From Panicum virgatum (Eukaryota > Streptophyta > Magnoliopsida > Poales > Poaceae), in NCBI RefSeq assembly GCF_016808335.1, contig NC_053137.1:10094506-10158505 (forward strand): 64,000 nt of DNA. Direction: 5' to 3'. Below the pieces are notes generated by a model. The model was given only the letters and a program-made list of their open reading frames with translations, searched no databases and was not told the DNA's origin. Positions 49,951-62,710 of the stretch are shown one piece after another. Both the position numbers and the translations under genes were made by a program. Each line of letters opens with the position of its first letter. The first letter of the stretch is position 1.

Positions 49951-50664
49951 ATCCGTCAGCCGCAGGGTTAGCTTCTGGAGGAGGAGAGCCAAGAGGAGTG
50001 CCGATGTTGGGAGTGTCAGAGTCGCCAGGGAGGTCGTAGCCCACAGTCTTGCTGACGAGGTCTGTGTTTCACCACTTGTTTGTGGGAAGTGCCCGGCGAA
50101 GCCTGATACCGCGCACAGAGGCCGACATCGAACTGAATGTCCGGTCGCGTCGCCGTCAGGTACAGAAGGGAGCCAATCATGCTCCTGTACTCTTTCTGGT
50201 CCAACGCCTCGCCGTCCAAGTCCGCATCAAACGCCGTCGATGTACTGATCGGAGTCGGCTGAGGAGACAAGTCACTCATGTCGAACTTTCTCAGCAAGTC
50301 CTTGGTGTATTTGGCTTGGTGGACGAACGTGCCCTGGGAAGTTTGCTTGATCTGCAGCCCGAGGAAGAACTGCAGCTCACCCATCATGCTCATCTCGAAC
50401 TCCCTGGACATCTGCTCAGAAAACATGGAAACAAGAGCGTGAGAAGAGCCACCAAAGATGATATCATTCACGTAAATCTGAACCAACAAAAAGTCAGAGC
50501 CAGAATGCATGAGGAACAATATTTTATCAACACATCCCATTTTAAAACCTTGAGCAAGCAAGAAATTTTTAAACCTATCGTACCAAGCTCTAGGCGCCTG
50601 TTTCAAACCATAAAGAGCTTTCTGAAGTTTGTAAACTCAGTTTGGAAACATGAGGTTTTCAAAA
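49951..50664 (-). pseudogene. SIRE-type copia RT/RNase H fragment (downstream half)
   Basis: Minus strand: QKALYGLKQAPRAWYDR, QIYVNDIIFGGSS (RT catalytic motif YVND, expected YVDD), EMSMMGELQFFLGLQIKQ, YRSMIGSLLYLTATRPDIQF. The RNase H part is cut soon after and joined to TVGYDLPGDSDTPNIG-like sequence. The upstream half is at 62394-62700. The young chromovirus inserted between the halves with the duplication CAAAA. Confidence 0.8.
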
Positions 50665-51268
50665 TGTAACACCCGTATTTTCAAATTAGGAACCAAAATA
50701 AATTTAATTGGGTTTGTTATAGGCTCGATAAGGTTTTATTTAACTTTATCTTGAATTTAGAGCATTTGCCGGAAGTTAAATAAAATACCTAGCCATAAAA
50801 TAAATGTAAGGAAAATAGGTTTGTGCATCTCATGCTGCTTTGCATTTTTATTTGCTTGTTGTTCAACTTAAGTTCAAATCTTTGAGTTTGAATTTAATTT
50901 GAAAGTGTTTGAATCATTTTGGAAAAATGGAAAGTCTTTTCTTTTTCTCCCACTCTTTCAGCCCAGCCCATCTCTGCCTTTTTCTTTTTTTCCCGCAGCC
51001 CAGCAACTTCTTTCCCGCGGCCCAGAAATTTCTTTCCCGCGGCCCAGAAATTTCCTTCCCGCCGGCCCGTTCCCCCCCCCCCCCCCCGCCTCTTGGCCCA
51101 ACCGGCCCAGCGCCCCCTTCCCCTCCCTGACTCACCGCCAGGCGGGACCCGCCTGTCGGGCGCGTCTTCCTCCCCGACCGAGCCGGACTCTGGCTCGAGT
51201 CCGACCTGGCCACGCGCGCGCCGCCGTGTTCCTCTCGGGCCCGCACGCCCAGGCGCCTCGCCCGCCCC

Positions 51269-51275
51269 TATAAAA
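51269..51275 (+). promoter_or_regulatory. TATA box of chromovirus LTR
   Basis: TATAAAA directly downstream of GC-rich sequence and about 25 bp before a CCTAGAACCCTAAACC start-like region. The same motif is in the 3' LTR at about 60246. Confidence 0.6.
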
Positions 51276-52125
51276 GCAACGCCAGGCCCCCTAGAACCCT
51301 AAACCGCAGCCGCAGCCGCCGCCTTCGCAAAAACCTAGCCCGCGCCGCCGCCATTGTTGAAGCTTCTCAGAGCTTCGCCGCGCCGCCGTTCCGTTTCGAT
51401 TCCTCGACGACATCACTGCTCCGGAGCTCCGCCGTGGTGAGAGGAACCTCGCCGATCTTTTATCTCCCTCCCTCTCGCTCTGTTTCGGCCGCAGTCGCTC
51501 GCCGGAGATTTCGCTCCGCCATGCGCCGCCGCTAGCCCGCTCCGCTGTCCTAGCGCCCTTCCAAACCCCCTAATTGAGTTCGCGTGCTCGCGCTCGCGCT
51601 TCCAGTCCCAGACCCGAGCCAAACGAGCCCCGGACGGCCGTTTACGGCCAAGTCCGGCCATCCCGCCGCCGCAGGCCGCCGCCCGCCACGCCGCCGGCTG
51701 TCCAGCGCCGCCGCAGCAGCTCCGAACCGTTCCCAGCCATCGGATCTAAATCGCACGGTCCAGATTAGATTGGATCCAAGTCAACTGAGTTAGAAACCGG
51801 TCAACCATGATCTTTTTGCACTTAAGCCCCTCTGTTTTTCCAAAATTAACCCGCCGTCCACTGCTGTTGGAAAATATTTACAAATCAGCCCCTGTTTTTA
51901 TGATCTAGCCCCTGCGTATAAGGTTTAATTACGAATTAGCCCTTAGATCTTGTTTTAGCCTTAACTTTCTCGTTTTAGATCCGTTTTCGATGGTCTTTGC
52001 GCTCACGCGATCGTTGCAATGAGTAGAATAGTTTAGTAACCTCTTTTTGTACTGTTTTTGTTGATTGGTGTACTGTTTCTTATTGTTTGTACTTGTTTGC
52101 TTGCATGTGCGTGTGTGTGCGATAG

Positions 52126-53190
52126 ACGATCCGCAGTTCGAGGAGCAGCAGCAAGATCAAGGCTTCGGAGGACCGGACCAGCAGCAGTTTGAGGAAGGCA
52201 AGTGGACCCTTGACCATATTTTTGACCCATGAAATCACCAAAACTATCACATTTACTTTTATGTTCATGCATGTGTCTATAATATGATGGGAACCGAGTT
52301 AAGGACATGCCTAGTATTGTTTACCTTATTCCTTGATCAACTTGGGTTTAAATTCATGTTGGGTAGTTATGCTAGTTGCTATACTTTGGGATATGGTTGG
52401 TTAATGATGATACAAATATTATATATGTTTTATTCCATGTTCATGATGATTAATGTTGTTAATCAAGAGTATATGATTTAATTGGAACATGGAGAACCAC
52501 CCAGGAAAACAGTACAACCACAATACTATATGGCTCTGGTCTTGGCTAAGTAACTAGATGATCTATATGTCGTGCTGGGGCGTTTGATTGGTGGTTTTAT
52601 TTTTGGGTTGTCGTGCTTTGAGGAGCGGGTGAAGGAAGCTTCGTCTTCTGAGGCACCGCAGAAAAAGGGACCAGTGCGCACATATAGTGATTCTTTGGAA
52701 AAGCCTCGTAGTGAATCCCTAGCCACTCACCAAAGGAAGTGTTTAAGGGCTTTGCAAACCCGGGCGACATGGGAAACACGAATTGTGGGTAAAGTGTACA
52801 ACCTCTGCAGAGTGTAAAACTAACCGGTTAGCCGTGCTCACGGTCAAGAGCGGCTTGGACCCTCACATGATAATTTAACTTGAAGTTGATCTAAATCGAT
52901 GATCTAATTTATGGTTAATTGTTGTTTATCTTTATATATGCTTATCTTGTGGGATTAATGGTATATACTTATATCTAGCTAGTGCTTGCTAATAAAATAT
53001 GATCAACTAAAATTGCTGGGTGCAGTTAAACCGTGTCAGCTATCCCTTGAATTAGCCATGCATATATATTATAGTTGTTTTCTTGCCACTTGTTGAGTAC
53101 CAACCATAAGTGTACTCACCCTTGCATACTTGCTGCTCAGACCGTAATAACAACTGTCCGGAGTTTCCAGAAGACTTCGAGGATTTCTAG
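52126..53190 (+). other. Spliced acidic mini-ORF within young chromovirus 5' LTR
   Basis: Internal exon 52126-52197 (acceptor GCGATAG, 72 bp, phase 1 in and out) encodes PQFEEQQQDQGFGGPDQQQF and ends GAAG|GCAAGT, a GC donor. The terminal exon begins after CTGCTCAG at 53141 and reads in phase 1 through CPEFPEDFEDF to the TAG at 53188-53190. A TATA box lies upstream and an AATAAA downstream, so promoter, exons and polyadenylation signal all sit inside the LTR. The first exon and start codon are not identified. Confidence 0.48.
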
Positions 53191-53420
53191 GCGTATGTCT
53201 CCCAGTCATCTGCCTGTGCTGAAGAAGTTTCCGCTGCTACTCTATAGTCGTTTATTTATTCGCTTTAGATCTTCGGTTTTGTAATAAAGTCTTTAATACT
53301 CTCTTTACGTTTGCACTAGTTGTGATATTCACTTTATGTTTAATCATATGTGTGTAAACTGATCCTGGCGCACATATGAGATGCATTCGGTTTGCCTTCA
53401 TAAACCGGGTGTGACAGAAG

Positions 53421-53432
53421 TGGTATCAGAGC
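53421..53432 (+). other. Primer binding site (initiator tRNA-Met)
   Basis: TGGTATCAGAGC four bases after the 5' LTR end, complementary to the 3' end of plant initiator tRNA-Met, the usual primer for this lineage. Confidence 0.9.
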
Positions 53433-53618
53433 AGTGTTGACTGTAGGACGTTAGCCTAGATAGAAATGGTCGAGAAATTAAGGTCTATCTTGCTTAGTGG
53501 CCATGCTCTTTCATGCTTATTTGCTTAATCTTTATTGCTAGCTTTTAATCTCATCCTTGATCACATACTTGTCTTTTCTTTCAAGTATGTTCTAAAACTT
53601 TTCAATCCTGTTCTTCAG

Positions 53619-54728
53619 ATGGCCAGAACTAGGCAGACTGCTCGCAAGCGCACTGGAGGTCGTGCCTTCGCCCGTCGTACCGTACCTGCACCCGCTGAGC
53701 CTGTACCACCCCCAGCCCCAGCTCCAGTTCCAGCTCAGCCGGAGGAAGAGGTTGAGGAAGTGCCCGGGAGGGATTACTTCTTCGACGAAGACCAAGAAGG
53801 CAACATCCGGGAAGTTGATGCGGACGGGAACATACAGCCATCTCCACCGTCGCCGACGCCAGCACACGATCTAGGCCCGCCACTGGCCTATTTCGACGCT
53901 CAAGTTCCAGCGACCGCCGTCGCTGAGGGAGGAGAAGAGGAGGAGCCCCAGGAGATGTCAGAAGATGAAGCCCCAGCACCGCCGCCAGCACCTCCTGCTC
54001 CAGCAGCTTCAGCGCCTGCACCAGCTGGAGGAGACCCAGAAGGCCCAGAGGACCCGGACGATGAGGATGATGATGAAGACCCGCCAGAAGAAAGGGGACT
54101 GTACTGCGTCTACACCTCAACCCACGAGGAGGGTCACTTCCCCCTGCTGCTTCGGGACACGCTGGAAGAGCTTCACAACCCCGTGGCTCCCCTGTACAAG
54201 ACAAGGCATTATGAAGACCCAGCGCTCGGCGACTACTTCGTCACTCGGGTCCACATAAGGGTGGATACTGGACCCCGAGGCATGATGACCGTCTCCGCAC
54301 ATGATTCCTCGACACCCATGGCGACCTACCGTGCCTCAGTAAGCCATGCTGCCATGAGGGCTCTCTGGTCTCTCAATCACACTAACCGCCGAGACTTGGA
54401 GAGCACAGACTATCAGCACCTTCCTCGCCGTGTCCGTGGGACCGAGCATACGGAGTTGACACTTGGAGAGGACGAGGAGAACCGCGTCAATGTCACAGTG
54501 CGAGCTCTCGCTGGAGTTGACACAGACTTAAGGAATGTCGTCAACCAGCTGGACGACACCCAAGACCGACTGAGAGAAGCTCACCACAGGATTCGCCAGC
54601 TTGAGGCCCAGCTCGCAGGAGAGGCGCCTCCACCTGTTCCAGAGGGGGAGCCTCCGCATCCCGCCTTGTCACCCCCGCGCAAGAGGCTTCGTTTCGGCGA
54701 CCGTGGCTACCAGAACCGTTTCTATTAG
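53619..54728 (+). CDS. Extra ORF of chromovirus with histone H3 tail-like N terminus
   Basis: 369-residue protein from the ATG at 53619; an upstream in-frame codon could extend it, but this ATG begins the H3-like match. Residues 2-16 read ARTRQTARKRTGGRA against ARTKQTARKSTGGKA of histone H3: 12 of 15 identical, Lys9 and Arg2/8 kept, Lys4 and Lys14 changed to Arg, Ser10 to Arg. Next come a Pro/Ala-rich region, an acidic region (about residues 30-190), a folded-looking middle (GLYCVYTSTHEEGHFPLLL to YRASVSHAAMRALWSLNHTN) that resembles the extra ORF at 23340-25980, a coiled coil (VVNQLDDTQDRLREAHHRIR) and a basic nuclear-localisation-like PPRKRLRF at the end. It lies between primer site and gag on the sense strand. 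Nuclear action is inferred; function unknown. Confidence 0.8.
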   Translation: MARTRQTARKRTGGRAFARRTVPAPAEPVPPPAPAPVPAQPEEEVEEVPGRDYFFDEDQEGNIREVDADGNIQPSPPSPTPAHDLGPPLAYFDAQVPATAVAEGGEEEEPQEMSEDEAPAPPPAPPAPAASAPAPAGGDPEGPEDPDDEDDDEDPPEERGLYCVYTSTHEEGHFPLLLRDTLEELHNPVAPLYKTRHYEDPALGDYFVTRVHIRVDTGPRGMMTVSAHDSSTPMATYRASVSHAAMRALWSLNHTNRRDLESTDYQHLPRRVRGTEHTELTLGEDEENRVNVTVRALAGVDTDLRNVVNQLDDTQDRLREAHHRIRQLEAQLAGEAPPPVPEGEPPHPALSPPRKRLRFGDRGYQNRFY

Positions 54729-55016
54729 ATGATAGGCTTAAGAGTTTAGGTTGAGTCTTGTAAAGAGTCTTTTTGTAATCGCTAGCTCGTGAACGTTTGC
54801 TTAAGTGTGTTAGTTAATCAGTGTGTTTCAATGCTTGGTTTTGTGAACAATTGTGAGTTGGCTTTTTGTAATGATTGTGGTGTAATTATGGAGTGATGAC
54901 CATAATTGCATCAAGTTTTTAATAAAGTTAGCTAGTTAGTAAAGCTTGGGGTTATCCATTTTAATTTATTTTGTCTCTATCTCGTCCTTGCACCAATATT
55001 TTACCATGATTATTTC
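54729..55016 (+). other. Spacer between extra ORF and gag-pol
   Basis: AT-rich, no coding. Contains AATAAA at 54920-54925, a possible polyadenylation signal for a subgenomic extra-ORF mRNA. Confidence 0.4.
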
Positions 55017-58000
55017 ATGAGTCTTACTTGTCTAACCGGTCAGATGGTGAACACCAGGTCCGGATCAGGAATTGATCAGCCACCAGTGCAGCGTCAGAGA
55101 AGAGGCAACAACCAGCAACCCAACAACATGAGTGGAGGCAACAACCAGAACAACGGGCCACCGCCACCACCACCAGCAGGGATGGAGCAGTTCCTTGCTG
55201 CGCAGACACAGCTGCTGACTCAAATGGCCAACGCCATGGCCAATCTACAAGCTCAAGCGAACCAAGCTCCAGTACCACAGCCGCCACAGAGGGATCGCCA
55301 CCGTGACTTCATGAGTCACAGACCTCCTACTTTCTCCCACTCACCAGATCCTCTTCACGCCGATGACTGGCTCAAGACCATTGATAAGATGCTGAACATA
55401 GTTCAGTGTACAGACAGGGAGAAGGTACTGTATGCTTCAGGTAGATTGGAAGGAACTGCAGCAGACTGGTGGGATGCTTATACCGCCGCCCATGTTGATC
55501 AAAACACTATCACCTGGGATGAGTTCAGAACTCAATTCAGGGAGCATCATATACCTGAGGGTTTGATGAAGCTGAAGAGGCAGGAATTTCTAGCTCTGAA
55601 GCAAGGTGGAATGACCGTAAGTGAGTATCGGGACAAGTTCATCCAGTTGTCCCGCTATGCCTCCGCAGACGTGGCCACAGATGGGCAGAAGCAGGACTAC
55701 TTCAGGCTAGGGTTGCTTGCACCTATCAGATATCAGTTGTTGGTACACAGGTTTGAGAGTTTCCAGAAACTGGTGGACAATGCCATCGCCGTGGAGAATG
55801 CTCGCAAGGAGATGGGCGAGCAGAAGCGGAAGTTCGAGTCACAAAGCCAGTCTAGCAACTCGCGCCCGCGCTTTGGACCCCCACAAGGAAACCAGATTCG
55901 CCCAGGAGGACAGAATGCCAACTTTGGGCAGAACCAGTATCAGTACCCGCGCCAAGTTCAGCAGAATCAACAGAATCAGCAGTCGGCGCAACGCTTCAAC
56001 CCCCAGCAGAACCGTCAGAACACTCCTGTCGGTACTCCCGTGAGGAACAACAACACAGCCCCTACTGGGTCCACCGTGTGTTTCAAGTGTGGTGGACATG
56101 GTCATTATGCGAACCGTTGTCCCAATCCTCCTCAGAACACTCCTGCTCAGAACAACGCTAGCGGACAGAGGCAGACTCCGCAGCAGCAGCCTAGGAACAA
56201 CAATCAGACCCCGCAGAGCAACAGAGGACAGCAGAACTACGTCCACGGCAGGGTCAACCATGTGACTGCAGACACCGCTCAGGAGGCTCAGGACGCTGTA
56301 TTCGGTATGTTCTTAGTCAACTCAACCCCTGCATCAGTTTTATTCGATTCTGGAGCATCGCATACTTTTATATCTACTCAATACATGGCCAAGCACTCCA
56401 TACCGCTTTGCACCATGCCTAGAGCTATGCTAGTAAACTCACCCGGGGGAACCATGAGAGCTATGTACCAGTGCCACGGAATTAAAATTCAGATTATGGG
56501 TAGAGAGTTTGATGCAAGACCTATAGTTCTGGATTCGGATGGAATTGATGTTATCCTTGGGATGGACTGGTTAACCAAGCACGATGCTGTCATTCAATGT
56601 GCCAAGAGATCAGTGCTCCTTACCAGCCCAGCAGGTGAAAGGTTTGAGTTCTTTGCAACCACTCCAACACCAGCAGATTGTACGGTGAACCAGATGAAGG
56701 CTGCTCTGATAGAGGACATCAGGATAGCATGCGAGTACTCAGATGTGTTCCCCGATGACTTGCCAGGTATGCCACCTGAACGTGACATTGAGTTCATTAT
56801 AGATCTTTTACCTGGTACTACACCTATTGCTAAGAGACCATATAGGATGTCCGCTGGTGAACTAGAAGAACTTAAGAAACAATTAAAGGAATTGTTAGAT
56901 AAGAAATTTATTCGTGCTAGTTCATCACCATGGGGAGCCCCAGTGATCTTTGTGGACAAGAAGGATGGTACACAGAGGATGTGTGTGGACTACAGGTCAT
57001 TAAATGAAGTTACCATCAAGAACAAGTATCCGTTGCCTCGTATAGAAGATTTGTTTGACCAGCTGAGAGGAGCCAAGGTATTCTCTAAGATTGATCTGAG
57101 GTCAGGGTATCACCAGTTGAGGATACGACCCTCGGATATTCCCAAGACCGCTTTCACTACCAGATATGGGTTGTATGAATATACGGTTATGTCATTCGGG
57201 TTGACCAATGCACCAGCTTACTTCATGTACCTGATGAATAAGGTGTTTATGGAGTACCTCGACAAGTTCGTAGTGGTGTTCATTGATGATATATTGGTGT
57301 ACTCCAAGAATGAGGAAGAACATGAGGAACACTTGAGGCTTGTTTTGCAGAAGCTCAGGGAGCATCAGTTGTACGCCAAGCTCAGCAAATGTGAATTTTG
57401 GTTGAACGAGGTTTCATTTCTTGGTCATGTCATCACAGATGGAGGAATTGCAGTTGATCCCAGCAAGGTCAGAGATGTGTTGAAGTGGGAACCACCTCAG
57501 ACAGTGTCAGAAATCCGGAGTTTCTTAGGACTCGCAGGCTACTACAGAAGATTTATAGAAGGCTTCTCCAAGATAGTGAAACCCCTTACCTCGCTACTGG
57601 AGAAAGGAAAAGAGTTTGTATGGTCAGAGGAGTGCCAAGCCAGTTTTGAAGAATTAAAGAAGCGGCTGACTACAGCTCCCGTGTTGGCTATGCCAGACAT
57701 TCACAAGAGTTTTGATATATATTGTGATGCATCTCGTCAGGGACTTGGTTGTGTGCTAATGCAAGAGGGACATGTGATTGCTTATGTGTCTCGTCAGTTA
57801 AGGAAGCATGAGCAGAACTACCCCACTCATGATTTAGAGTTAGCAGCCGTGGTACATGCTTTGAAGATATGGAGGCACTATTTGCTGGGACACAGGTGTC
57901 AGATCTACACAGATCACAAGAGTCTGAAATACATATTCACTCAGAATGATCTCAACCTGAGACAGAGAAGATGGTTAGAGCTCATAAAGGATTATGACCT

Positions 58001-59639
58001 GGAAATACACTACCATCCAGGGAAAGCTAATGTGGTTGCAGATGCTTTGAGCCGCAAGAGCCATGTAAATGCAATGAGAGTTAGGCAGATGCCCCAGGAA
58101 TTGTGTTGGGAGTTTGAGAAACTCAACCTTGGTTTTGTTGGTCACACCGAGGGAATCACCATAGAAGTCGAGCCGACTCTTGAGCAAGAGATACGGAAGG
58201 GTCAGCTTGAGGATGATAAGATCAAAGAGATCAAGGAGCTGATGGAAAAAGGCAAGACACCTGATTTTACTGAGGATGAACATGGAACTGTGTGGTTCAG
58301 AAAGAGGATATGTGTGCCAGAGGTGGATCATCTGCGAGAAAAGATTCTAAAAGAAGCCCATGATTCCGCCTATTCGATTCATCCAGGCAGTACCAAAATG
58401 TACCAGGACTTGAAAGAAAGATATTGGTGGTATGGTATGAAGCGTGATGTTGCAGCTCACGTGGCCATATGTGATGTGTGTCAGAGAGTCAAGGCAGAAC
58501 ATCAGAGACCAGCCGGTTTGTTGCAACCATTGAAAATACCAGAATGGAAATGGGAAGAAATTGGTATGGATTTCATTGTGGGGTTACCACGTACAAAGGA
58601 TGGCTATGATTCCATATGGGTTATTGTGGATAGGTTGACAAAGGTAGCTCACTTCATCCCAGTGAAGACTACTTACTCAGGAGCTAAACTGGCAGAGCTA
58701 TACATATCCAGGATTGTCTGCTTACATGGGGTACCTAAGAAGATTGTGTCCGATAGAGGTACTCAGTTCACGTCACGGTTTTGGCAGAAGTTGCATGAGT
58801 CAATGGATACGAAGCTAAACTTCAGCTCAGCGTACCACCCGCAGACGGATGGGCAGACAGAAAGGACCAATCAGGTGTTAGAGGACATGCTTAGGGCTTG
58901 TGCTCTAAAGCACGGAGGCAGTTGGGATAAGAGCTTGCCGTACGCAGAGTTTTCATACAACAACAGTTACCAGGCCAGCTTGAAGATGGCACCGTTTGAG
59001 GCACTATATGGAAGGAAGTGCAGAACTCCATTATATTGGAGTGAGACGGGAGAAAGCCAGTTGTTCGGTCCAGAGATCATCAAAGAGGCCGAACGACAAG
59101 TACAGATTGTTAGAGATAATCTGAAAGTGGCACAGTCGAGGCAGAAGAGCTATGCAGACAAGGGACGTAGAGAGTTGATCTTTGAAGAAGGAGATTTTGT
59201 GTATCTCAAAGTATCACCTATCAGAGGTTTGCGCAGATTCAAAGTTAAAGGGAAGTTGTCACCTCGTTACATCGGACCATTCAAGATCTTGGCCCGGAGG
59301 GGTGAAGTAGCTTATGAGCTAGAACTACCGGCCCGATTATCCGATGTGCACAATGTGTTCCATATATCTCAGTTGAGAAAGTGTTTGAGGGTGCCAGATG
59401 AGAAATTGCCCCTGGAGGAACTGAATGTGCAAGATGATCTGACTTATACCGAGTATCCAGTCAAAATTCTGGACACGTTAGAGAGGATTACTCGAAGTAA
59501 GAGGATACGGATGTGTAAGGTTCAGTGGAGTCATCATGCAGAGGATGAGGCTACTTGGGAAAGAGAAGATGAGTTACAGGCAGAATTCCCCCAGCTCTTT
59601 GCTAGCCCAGCTGAATCTCGAGGACGAGATTCCTTTTAA
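55017..59639 (+). CDS. Intact gag-pol polyprotein of Tekay-type chromovirus
   Basis: Single 1540-residue ORF without stops. ATG at 55017, but MVNTRSGSG at 55044 is the likelier gag start. Domains, numbered from 55017: gag core about 95-260; CCHC knuckle [14 protein letters not shown] (355-368); aspartic protease [10 protein letters not shown] (Asp444); reverse transcriptase with [10 protein letters not shown] (Asp757-758); RNase [11 protein letters not shown] (about 905); integrase zinc finger ending [11 protein letters not shown] (about 1110-1160); integrase core [26 protein letters not shown] (about 1184-1283); chromodomain [19 protein letters not shown] with [15 protein letters not shown] (about 1481-1530). 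Gag and pol are in one frame with no shift, as usual for plant chromoviruses. The chromodomain guides integration to marked chromatin. Confidence 0.95.
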
Positions 59640-59650
59640 GGGGGTAGGTT
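59638..59650 (+). other. Polypurine tract of young chromovirus
   Basis: AAGGGGGTAGGTT right after the pol stop and directly before the 3' LTR, priming plus-strand synthesis. Confidence 0.85.
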
Positions 59651-62393
59651 TGTAACACCCGTATTTTCAAATTAGGAACCAAAATAAATTTAATTGGGTT
59701 TGTTATAGGCTCGATAAGGTTTTATTTAACTTTATCTTGAATTTAGAGCATTTGCCGGAAGTTAAATAAAATACCTAGCCATAAAATAAATGTAAGGAAA
59801 ATAGGTTTGTGCATCTCATGCTGCTTTGCATTTTTATTTGCTTGTTGTTCAACTTAAGTTCAAATCTTTGAGTTTGAATTTAATTTGAAAGTGTTTGAAT
59901 CATTTTGGAAAAATGGAAAGTCTTTTCTTTTTCTCCCACTCTTTCAGCCCAGCCCATCTCTGCCTTTTTCTTTTTTTCCCGCAGCCCAGCAACTTCTTTC
60001 CCGCGGCCCAGAAATTTCTTTCCCGCGGCCCAGAAATTTCCTTCCCGCCGGCCCGTTCCCCCCCGCCTCTTGGCCCAACCGGCCCAGCGCCCCCTTCCCC
60101 TCCCTGACTCACCGCCAGGCGGGACCCGCCTGTCGGGCGCGTCTTCCTCCCCGACCGAGCCGGACTCTGGCTCGAGTCCGACCCGGCCACGCGCGCGCCG
60201 CCGTGTTCCTCTCGGGCCCGCACGCCCAGGCGCCTCGCCCGCCCCTATAAAAGCAACGCCAGGCCCCCTAGAACCCTAAACCGCAGCCGCAGCCGCCGCC
60301 TTCGCAAAAACCTAGCCCGCGCCGCCGCCATTGTTGAAGCTTCTCGGAGCTTCGCCGCGCCGCCGTTCCGTTTCGATTCCTCGACGACATCACTGCTCCG
60401 GAGCTCCGCCGTGGTGAGAGGAACCTCGCCGATCTTTTATCTCCCTCCCTCTCGCTCTGTTTCGGCCGCAGTCGCTCGCCGGAGATTTCGCTCCGCCATG
60501 CGCCGCCGCTAGCCCGCTCCGCTGTCCTAGCGCCCTTCCAAACCCCCTAATTGAGTTCGCGTGCTCGCGCTCGCGCTTCCAGTCCCAGACCCGAGCCAAA
60601 CGAGCCCCGGACGGCCGTTTACGGCCAAGTCCGGCCATCCCGCCGCCGCAGGCCGCCGCCCGCCACGCCGCCGGCTGTCCAGCGCCGCCGCAGCAGCTCC
60701 GAACCGTTCCCAGCCATCGGATCTAAATCGCACGGTCCAGATTAGATTGGATCCAAGTCAACTGAGTTAGAAACCGGTCAACCATGGTCTTTTTGCACTT
60801 AAGCCCCTCTGTTTTTCCAAAATTAACCCGCCGTCCACTGCTGTTGGAAAATATTTACAAATCAGCCCCTGTTTTTATGATCTAGCCCCTGCGTATAAGG
60901 TTTAATTACGAATTAGCCCTTAGATCTTGTTTTAGCCTTAACTTTCTCGTTTTAGATCCGTTTTCGATGGTCTTTGCGCTCACGCGATCGTTGCAATGAG
61001 TAGAATAGTTTAGTAACCTCTTTTTGTACTGTTTTTGTTGATTGGTGTACTGTTTCTTATTGTTTGTACTTGTTTGCTTGCATGTGCGTGTGTGTGCGAT
61101 AGACGATCCGCAGTTCGAGGAGCAGCAGCAAGATCAAGGCTTCGGAGGACCGGACCAGCAGCAGTTTGAGGAAGGCAAGTGGACCCTTGACCATATTTTT
61201 GACCCATGAAATCACCAAAACTATCACATTTACTTTTATGTTCATGCATGTGTCTATAATATGATGGGAACCGAGTTAAGGACATGCCTAGTATTGTTTA
61301 CCTTATTCCTTGATCAACTTGGGTTTAAATTCATGTTGGGTAGTTATGCTAGTTGCTATACTTTGGGATATGGTTGGTTAATGATGATACAAATATTATA
61401 TATGTTTTATTCCATGTTCATGATGATTAATGTTGTTAATCAAGAGTATATGATTTAATTGGAACATGGAGAACCACCCAGGAAAACAGTACAACCACAA
61501 TACTATATGGCTCTGGTCTTGGCTAAGTAACTAGATGATCTATATGTCGTGCTGGGGCGTTTGATTGGTGGTTTTATTTTTGGGTTGTCGTGCTTTGAGG
61601 AGCGGGTGAAGGAAGCTTCGTCTTCTGAGGCACCGCAGAAAAAGGGACCAGTGCGCACATATAGTGATTCTTTGGAAAAGCCTCGTAGTGAATCCCTAGC
61701 CACTCACCAAAGGAAGTGTTTAAGGGCTTTGCAAACCCGGGCGACATGGGAAACACGAATTGTGGGTAAAGTGTACAACCTCTGCAGAGTGTAAAACTAA
61801 CCGGTTAGCCGTGCTCACGGTCAAGAGCGGCTTGGACCCTCACATGATAATTTAACTTGAAGTTGATCTAAATCGATGATCTAATTTATGGTTAATTGTT
61901 GTTTATCTTTATATATGCTTATCTTGTGGGATTAATGGTATATACTTATATCTAGCTAGTGCTTGCTAATAAAATATGATCAACTAAAATTGCTGGGTGC
62001 AGTTAAACCGTGTCAGCTATCCCTTGAATTAGCCATGCATATATATTATAGTTGTTTTCTTGCCACTTGTTGAGTACCAACCATAAGTGTACTCACCCTT
62101 GCATACTTGCTGCTCAGACCGTAATAACAACTGTCCGGAGTTTCCAGAAGACTTCGAGGATTTCTAGGCGTATGTCTCCCAGTCATCTGCCTGTGCTGAA
62201 GAAGTTTCCGCTGCTACTCTATAGTCGTTTATTTATTCGCTTTAGATCTTCGGTTTTGTAATAAAGTCTTTAATACTCTCTTTACGTTTGCACTAGTTGT
62301 GATATTCACTTTATGTTTAATCATATGTGTGTAAACTGATCCTGGCGCACATATGAGATGCATTCGGTTTGCCTTCATAAACCGGGTGTGACA
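59651..62393 (+). repeat. 3' LTR of young chromovirus (2743 bp)
   Basis: Nearly identical to 50665-53416. Differences seen: T/C near 51207, A/G near 51370, A/G near 51809, and 7 instead of 16 C in the C run. Carries the second copy of the acidic mini-ORF (61103-61174 and 62118-62167). Confidence 0.95.
61103..62167 (+). other. Spliced acidic mini-ORF within young chromovirus 3' LTR
   Basis: Identical in design and sequence to the 5' LTR copy: exon 61103-61174 with a GC donor, terminal exon 62118-62167 ending in TAG. In this LTR the AATAAA would serve the element's own 3' end. Confidence 0.45.
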
Positions 62394-62710
62394 CAAAACC
62401 AGGAGGTTTTTCACATAAACTTCCTCTTCAATAAAACCATTTAAGAAGGCAGATTTCAAATCCATTTGGAAAACTTTAAAACCCTTGGAAGCAGCAAATG
62501 CAAGAAAAAATCGAATCGCTTCTAAGCGTGCTACCGGGGCAAAAGTTTCATCATAATATATCCCTTCCTTTTGGCAAAACCTCTGGGCTACAAGTCGAGC
62601 CTTGTTCCGCACTACCAACTCATCTTCACCCTGCTTGTTCTTGAAAACCCACTTGGTTCCAATGGGCTGGTGAGGGGGTATGTAAACCCTATGCCGTGAC
62701 CGGTCAGACC
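62394..62710 (-). pseudogene. SIRE-type copia RT fragment (upstream half)
   Basis: Minus strand: [78 protein letters not shown], then a one-base frame slip and the chromovirus insertion. It joins 50664 downward after removal of the insertion. Upstream it is fused near 62.70-62.75 kb to LTR sequence, so gag, protease and integrase are deleted. Confidence 0.8.

What the first reader, a model, noticed from the sequence alone, without database searches (positions are those of the whole stretch)
53619..54728. Chromovirus extra ORF begins with a histone H3 tail copy
Directly after the Met, ARTRQTARKRTGGRA matches the H3 N terminus at 12 of 15 positions (K4R, S10R, K14R; K9 kept in an ARK context). 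After Met removal the protein would expose an H3-like tail, followed by acidic and coiled-coil regions and a basic NLS-like end. The element's integrase carries a chromodomain, a fold that in other proteins reads H3 lysine methylation. The mimic could bind the element's own chromodomain, host H3K9 readers or methyltransferases, or act as a histone-chaperone-like bait. The match is seen; the roles are inference.
Basis: partly seen in the sequence, partly recalled or inferred. Interest (0 to 1): 0.88.

Follow-up and report, generated by a model that had tools for sequence, protein, structure and literature searches.

The report
Grass retrotransposon protein wearing histone tail
A young, intact jumping gene in a grass genome encodes an extra protein whose first residues copy the tail of histone H3, keeping the lysine (K9) that marks silent DNA, joined to a domain predicted to be shaped like those of plant gene-silencing proteins, which makes it a good candidate for interfering with or exploiting the plant's silencing machinery.

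Summary
Observation confirmed. ORF 53619-54728 lies between primer-binding site and gag-pol of a complete, young Ty3/gypsy chromovirus (50665-62393; LTRs 99.56% identical). After Met, 12 of 15 residues equal histone H3; the next best match in six frames of the window is 7 of 15. It belongs to a grass ORF0 family: one relative at about 50% identity reads MARTKQTARKSTGGR, another matches H3 at 16 of 21. Of 52 readable tails from a tail-free search, 20 keep K9; 31 of the 32 losses share one degenerate form. Added here: residues 171-258 are predicted to fold as a dsRBD, nearest to plant DRB7.2, HYL1 and DCL4, but without the RNA-gripping KKxAK lysines. The protein thus joins an H3K9 tail, acidic linker, dsRBD, coiled coil and NLS-like end. 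Best reading (inference): a nuclear decoy or adaptor acting on H3K9/small-RNA silencing; the element's own chromodomain is an unlikely partner. ORF0 and a DRBM resemblance are in print; partial H3 similarity of such ORFs probably is too (recalled, not verifiable here).

The parts
50660..50664 (.). 5' target site duplication CAAAA (repeated at 62394-62398)
50665..53416 (+). 5' LTR, TGTAACACCC...GGTGTGACA, 99.56% identical to the 3' LTR (3 mismatches and one gap in 2752 columns)
53421..53432 (+). primer-binding site TGGTATCAGAGC (tRNA-Met type; assignment recalled)
53616..53618 (+). CAG directly before the ORF0 start, after a pyrimidine-rich stretch: possible 3' splice site (unproven). A Gln codon stands here in 7 of the 8 relatives that show this place (P0002, P0003, P0005, P0009, P0029, P0086, P0096; Leu in P0118). 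CAG also precedes the likely gag ATG at 55044
53619..54728 (+). ORF0 (extra ORF), 369 aa
53622..53666 (+). H3 tail copy, residues 2-16 (H3 1-15), 12 of 15 identical
53646..53648 (+). AAG codon of the H3 K9 equivalent, the only Lys in the first 193 residues
53739..54092 (+). acidic, Pro/Ala-rich linker (residues 41-158, net charge -36), mostly low pLDDT
54102..54398 (+). dsRBD-like domain (model elements within 162-260; aligned about 171-258)
   Evidence: same fold in relative P0048
54486..54617 (+). long helix, probable coiled coil (residues 290-333)
54669..54698 (+). basic NLS-like motif SPPRKRLRFG (residues 351-360), among the least changed parts of the protein in the family
55017..59639 (+). 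open gag-pol (likely start ATG 55044): gag, zinc knuckle, protease, RT, RNase H, integrase
59508..59600 (+). chromodomain match at the integrase C terminus, third cage residue Tyr replaced by His
59651..62393 (+). 3' LTR

Best explanation
ORF0 of this Tekay/Retrosat2-type chromovirus is a nuclear accessory protein built from a captured histone H3 N terminus and a dsRBD-type domain of the plant DRB/Dicer kind. Once Met is removed, each subunit shows an H3-like tail with K9 in its native R-K context. The coiled coil, and probably the dsRBD, join subunits, so several tails are displayed together. The most likely action is interference with host transcriptional silencing: the tail is methylated by and/or binds H3K9 writers or readers (SUVH4-6, CMT3, SHH1, ADCP1 are candidates, recalled) and keeps them off the element's chromatin, while the dsRBD, which lacks the RNA-gripping lysines, occupies DRB or Dicer-like partners of the small-RNA arm. 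Shown: the tail, its descent in a family, the constraint around K9 where the tail is kept, the predicted fold, the missing RNA-binding motif, the basic C-terminal motif, the young intact element. Inferred: Met removal, nuclear entry, methylation, partners, and the anti-silencing outcome.
Against: I have no binding, methylation, localisation or silencing data for it. Over all 33 tree rows the tail is not significantly more conserved than the dsRBD (p 0.19). Of 52 readable tails 32 lost K9, and that form is abundant. R8, next to K9, changed 3 times even among the 18 rows. S10R sits next to K9 in this copy and could weaken writers or readers. A host could also use such a tail to silence the element. 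Foldseek alone gave no significant match, the two models share most of their alignment rows, and the dsRBD may bind partners outside RNA silencing.
Confidence: 0.37

Rival explanations
1. Targeting adaptor: the tail, methylated at K9, links the element's RNA-protein particle or integration complex to host H3K9 readers, bringing new copies to heterochromatin in place of a chromodomain that has lost its cage.
For: The chromodomain lacks a complete aromatic cage (PMC6317226 passages); the protein has an NLS-like end, a long helix and a dsRBD without RNA-gripping lysines. The element seems to sit inside a Ty1/copia element (ORFs, judged by eye). PMC11728184 suggests that extra-ORF proteins may shape insertion preference (passage).
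Against: One nested insertion says little. PMC3485330 (passages) reports Retrosat2 and its homologs as dispersed, not concentrated in centromeres. I know of no link of ORF0 to integrase or gag.
Confidence: 0.25
2. Captured fragment without a histone-type role: the H3 start supplied a good start codon and a basic N terminus; the dsRBD is the working part, and the tail is only decaying slowly.
For: K9 is lost in 32 of 52 readable tails, in one common form and in P0012. Over all 33 rows the tail is not more conserved than the dsRBD (p 0.19).
Against: In the rows that keep the tail, K9 and most neighbours did not change while positions 4, 5 and 10 did; the tail stays at the exact protein start over 40-50% identity; the distant P0057 keeps K9.
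Confidence: 0.23
3. Self-masking or chaperone-like protein: the basic H3 tail folds back on its own acidic linker, or the acidic linker binds histones, so that the protein behaves as a histone-chaperone-like factor at the element's chromatin.
For: Linker net charge -36 behind a tail of +8; acidic stretches recur in the family.
Against: Acidic low-complexity stretches are common; the linker is the least conserved part; any basic tail would do, whereas the K9 context is specifically kept in several clades.
Confidence: 0.08
4. The mimic binds the element's own integrase chromodomain.
For: The same element encodes both.
Against: The third cage residue Tyr is His and the Pfam match is below cut-off; type II chromodomains have no identified interaction partner (PMC6317226 passages).
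Confidence: 0.05

Closest known systems
ORF0 of Retrosat2/RIRE3/RIRE8/FRetro3 and ZMsat2, Sorsat2, Brasat2 (Gao et al. 2012, PMC3485330; abstract, passages and section 14 read)
   Same: Grass elements with about 3-kb LTRs and an ORF0 upstream of one gag-pol ORF; fast-evolving ORF0.
   Different: The word histone does not occur in its held text and it suggests catabolic enzymes; here an H3 tail and a dsRBD are seen. Its sequences could not be compared directly.
5'aORF of Tekay elements of Zea mays and Sorghum bicolor (Kazancev et al. 2024, PMC11728184; section 2.5 and passages read)
   Same: Grass Tekay 5'aORF proteins with predicted nuclear localisation, a long C-terminal helix and a structural match to a DRBM protein of soybean; a role in RNA-silencing modulation is suggested.
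   Different: Foldseek E 0.04-0.25 only; the word histone does not occur in its held text; loss of RNA-gripping lysines is not in the passages I read.
Extra ORFs of Poaceae chromoviruses (Steinbauerova et al. 2011, Genetica 139:1543; not held; abstract recalled)
   Same: As recalled, part of these ORFs show partial similarity to the histone H3 gene, ascribed to transduction or recombination. The capture itself would then be already known.
   Different: As far as recalled it gave no reading as a K9-centred mimic; not verifiable here.
Plant DRB7.2 (8z49, 8igd), HYL1 (3adi, 3adg, 3adj), DCL4 dsRBD2 (9k9p)
   Different: KKxAK lysines absent, net charge -2 over residues 168-262, one dsRBD joined to an H3 tail.
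Histone mimics of viruses and enzymes (recalled, e.g. influenza NS1, G9a)
   Same: A short H3-like sequence on a non-histone protein.
   Different: Here it stands at the N terminus itself, over 13-21 residues, carried by an LTR retrotransposon.
VANC anti-silencing proteins of VANDAL transposons (PMC10398659, search listing only)
   Same: Transposon proteins that counteract silencing.
   Different: Listed there as sequence-specific; no H3 tail or dsRBD known to me (recalled).

Membership tests
Tekay/Retrosat2-type grass chromovirus with ORF0 | Long LTRs near 3 kb with TGT..ACACCC / GGGYGTGACA ends | tested here: met
   LTR 2752 bp, TGTAACACCC...GGGTGTGACA; RIRE8 and Retrosat2 ends in PMC3485330 section 14 are TGTCACACCC-GGGCGTGACA
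Tekay/Retrosat2-type grass chromovirus with ORF0 | ORF0 between LTR and a single gag-pol ORF | tested here: met
Tekay/Retrosat2-type grass chromovirus with ORF0 | Chromodomain after the integrase | tested here: met
   Pfam Chromo E 0.0025, 18.1 bits, below its cut-off of 25.1; three of the four PDB hits carry chromodomain names (Clr4, HP1 twice; E 0.62-9.8), the best (2m2l, E 0.021) is an unnamed protein aligned alike
Tekay/Retrosat2-type grass chromovirus with ORF0 | RT/integrase phylogeny within Tekay | not tested
   no reference RT set was fetched
Tekay/Retrosat2-type grass chromovirus with ORF0 | ORF0 homologous to that of RIRE3, RIRE8 or Retrosat2 | tested here: inconclusive
   organism-named relatives seen only in Urochloa humidicola and Panicum miliaceum (one search lists 120 of 283); rice sequences not available to compare
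Histone H3 | Histone fold after the tail | tested here: not met
   no histone family among the Pfam matches up to E 1; the model has a dsRBD-like domain and a long helix instead
H3 tail mimic | H3-like sequence at an exposed protein end | tested here: met
   12/15 directly after Met; model pLDDT under 50 over residues 1-54, so probably disordered
H3 tail mimic | Conserved in relatives beyond the rest of the protein | tested here: inconclusive
   18 rows that keep the tail: p 0.0017 against linker, 0.0085 against dsRBD; all 33 rows: 0.026 and 0.19; 32 of 52 readable tails lost K9
H3 tail mimic | Modified or bound by H3 enzymes or readers | not testable with these tools
   needs peptide assays
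dsRBD | alpha-beta-beta-beta-alpha fold | tested here: met
   two models; Foldseek alone gave no E below 0.001, and no dsRBD family appears in the Pfam tables shown
dsRBD | KKxAK dsRNA-binding motif at the second helix | tested here: not met
   K/R in 0 of 44 rows at the first position, 7 of 44 at the second, 0 of 45 at the fifth; the place is set by the alignment with DCL4 dsRBD2

The most novel reading that the evidence does not exclude
A plant LTR retrotransposon family has long carried a bivalent anti-silencing protein: an N-terminal H3K9 tail decoy, in several subfamilies stripped of other modifiable lysines (K14 is Arg in 17 of the 20 K9-keeping tails, else Cys twice and Pro once; K18 and K23 are also Arg in P0096; K4 is Arg in this copy), fused to an RNA-blind DRB/Dicer-type dsRBD. 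One protein would thus block both arms of the loop that silences the element, H3K9 methylation and small-RNA production.
Probability: 0.25. Interest if true: 0.88.

Novelty: new variant of a known kind. Interest (0 to 1): 0.7.

Why it matters
Extra ORFs of grass chromoviruses have had no demonstrated function in the papers I saw. If the tail works as an H3K9 mimic, it would be a transposon-encoded histone mimic and a handle on how amplified elements live with silencing. Peptide methylation and reader-binding assays on a 25-residue peptide make it directly testable, and the form that lost K9 is a natural control.

Tried and rejected
Rejected: that the match is chance, that the start lies elsewhere, that the ORF is a whole histone, and that the canonical dsRNA-binding lysines are present. 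Foldseek against PDB and viral models gave no significant hit; the best dsRBD is rank 18, Staufen1 dsRBD4, E 3.4. The dsRBD therefore rests on VIA-align of two models plus non-significant sequence hints; other hits (two each) have unrelated names. Pfam gave nothing convincing for ORF0.

DNA of relatives was sought for dN/dS: genome contigs and viral contigs gave none, so selection was judged on proteins only. The nine tail positions called 'core' were chosen after seeing the alignment; the whole-tail p values are the fairer ones, and even these leave out 15 of 33 rows, namely the losers plus P0057. The 33 rows were picked because a tail could be read. Linker columns are hard to align and may inflate its changes. 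In one search, 67 of the 120 listed proteins had no readable tail (at least 5 of 15 matches after a Met); many look cut short, but complete tail loss cannot be excluded among them. One of the 53 counted (P0133) is an internal chance match and was dropped, leaving 52. One search found 283 proteins but lists only 120; each scored only the roughly 8,000 candidates sharing most words.

Left out of alignments: A3 holds 47 of the 57 proteins then known (P0009, whose frame shifts into unrelated sequence, and nine near-duplicates or fragments left out); A2 8 of 18; A4 18 of 31 domain slices; A5 32 of 57; A6 10 of 57; the tree 33 of 57. The first run of the column count stopped on an error and was rerun.

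Print searches bearing on an H3 tail in retrotransposon ORFs. None of the listed rows reports one, but most lists are capped (one search showed 15 of 19,783 and could not isolate the peptide term), most subscription papers are not held, and I recall that one older paper mentions partial H3 similarity.

Full report
What is there. The ORF lies in a complete Ty3/gypsy element at 50665-62393 with 2.75-kb LTRs (99.56% identical over 2752 columns, 3 mismatches and one gap), a CAAAA target duplication and a tRNA-Met type primer site (primer type recalled). At a recalled rate of 1.3e-8 the LTRs date the insertion to roughly 40,000 years. Gag-pol is open over 1540 codons with gag, protease, RT, RNase H, integrase and a weak chromodomain. 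ORF0 sits between primer site and gag-pol, in the order described for Retrosat2, RIRE3 and RIRE8 (PMC3485330, passages and section 14).

The tail. After Met, 12 of 15 residues equal H3 1-15; the second best stretch anywhere in six frames has 7; chance is about 1e-13. The start is sound: in this frame there is no ATG between the stop at 53526 and 53619.

Relatives. Searches with the protein (17 hits), a family profile (52 hits) and a profile without the tail (283 hits, 120 listed) define a family; the organism names seen are Urochloa humidicola and Panicum miliaceum, and the rest lie in metagenome or environmental contigs. P0010, about 50% identical to the window protein, reads MARTKQTARKSTGGR, nearer to H3 than the window copy (13 of 15). 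In another group (P0029, P0048, P0049, P0073, P0086, P0096, P0106, P0118) the match to H3 1-21 is 13 to 16 of 21; P0096 reads ARTYQTPRKSTGGRFPRRQLASR, with Arg at K14, K18 and K23. A match of that length points to capture of a real H3 gene start rather than to convergence (inference). Of the 120 listed, 52 have a readable tail; 20 keep K9 and 32 do not. Thirty-one of these 32 share one degenerate form (MVRTLQTTRINTSY-like); the 13 of them that were put in the tree form one clade (support 91/87). The other is P0012. The most distant member, P0057, keeps MARTKLTPRKRT, so the tail is probably ancestral and the losses derived, though P0057's branch is very long (3.09) and the root is a midpoint.

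Constraint. On a tree of the domain region (33 rows), the 18 rows left after dropping the degenerate clade, P0012 and P0057 show 1.43 changes per tail column against 3.01 (linker, p 0.0017) and 2.60 (dsRBD, p 0.0085). K9, R2, T6, A7, G12 and G13 did not change; R8 and T11 changed 3 times each, T3 once, and positions 4, 5 and 10 changed 3, 4 and 3 times. With the 20 rows outside the degenerate clade the p values are 0.019 and 0.025. With all 33 rows the tail is more conserved than the linker (p 0.026) but not than the dsRBD (p 0.19). In the degenerate clade there is no sign of constraint on the tail (0.85 changes per column against 0.58 in the dsRBD). The NLS-like stretch is more conserved than the tail in the two larger sets. 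So constraint lies around K9 and only where the tail is kept; excluding the losers makes this partly circular, and nucleotide data are needed.

Lysines. In the window protein the K9 equivalent is the only Lys among the first 193 residues (Lys at protein positions 10, 194 and 355). In 20 chosen proteins of the family, the window's included, the linker has 0-3 Lys.

Mechanism. NLS-like end, long helix, dsRBD of the plant silencing kind and an H3K9 tail together suggest a protein that meets H3K9 and small-RNA silencing factors. I put interference with silencing first (0.37), adaptor for targeting second (0.25), relic tail third (0.23). Binding to the element's own chromodomain is unlikely, since the cage is incomplete.

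What is known. ORF0 is known (PMC3485330). A DRBM resemblance of maize and sorghum Tekay 5'aORFs and a role in RNA silencing were proposed in PMC11728184 (section 2.5 and passages). I recall that the abstract of Steinbauerova et al. 2011 reports partial histone H3 similarity in part of the Poaceae chromovirus extra ORFs; the paper is not held, and none of the rows listed by my ten paper searches showed the statement. If the recall is right, the H3 capture is not new. What I did not see in those listings or in the passages read is the match at the exact N terminus, the K9-centred constraint, the K-to-R pattern, its loss in one form, and its union with a dsRBD lacking RNA-binding lysines.

Noticed in passing
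52126-52197 and 53141-53190 (5' LTR): Two exon-like segments in the LTR (AG before the first, AG|GCAAGT at its end; CAG before the second) join into one open frame DPQFEEQQQDQGFGGPDQQQFEEDRNNNCPEFPEDFEDF*; possibly a captured or LTR-borne spliced gene, or chance over so short a stretch.
   Followed up: partly
53616-53618 and 55041-55043: Both ORF0 and the likely gag ATG follow CAG directly; a Gln codon stands before MART in 7 of 8 relatives that show this place. Possible alternative 3' splice sites that choose between ORF0 and gag.
   Followed up: partly
50016-50606 and about 62403-62618, minus strand: Copia-type RT pieces (judged by eye from the translations) flank the element on the minus strand: it seems inserted in a Ty1/copia reverse transcriptase gene.
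   Followed up: partly
53619-54728: ORF0 is richer in G+C (0.61) than gag-pol (0.47), and Lys-poor (3 Lys) with Arg instead, as in the 20 family proteins looked at.
   Followed up: partly
50964-51089 and 59950-60075: A 22-base tandem repeat (CTTTCCCGCGGCCCAGAAATTT type) in both LTRs, before a TATAAAA stretch at about 51270 in the 5' LTR.
   Followed up: no
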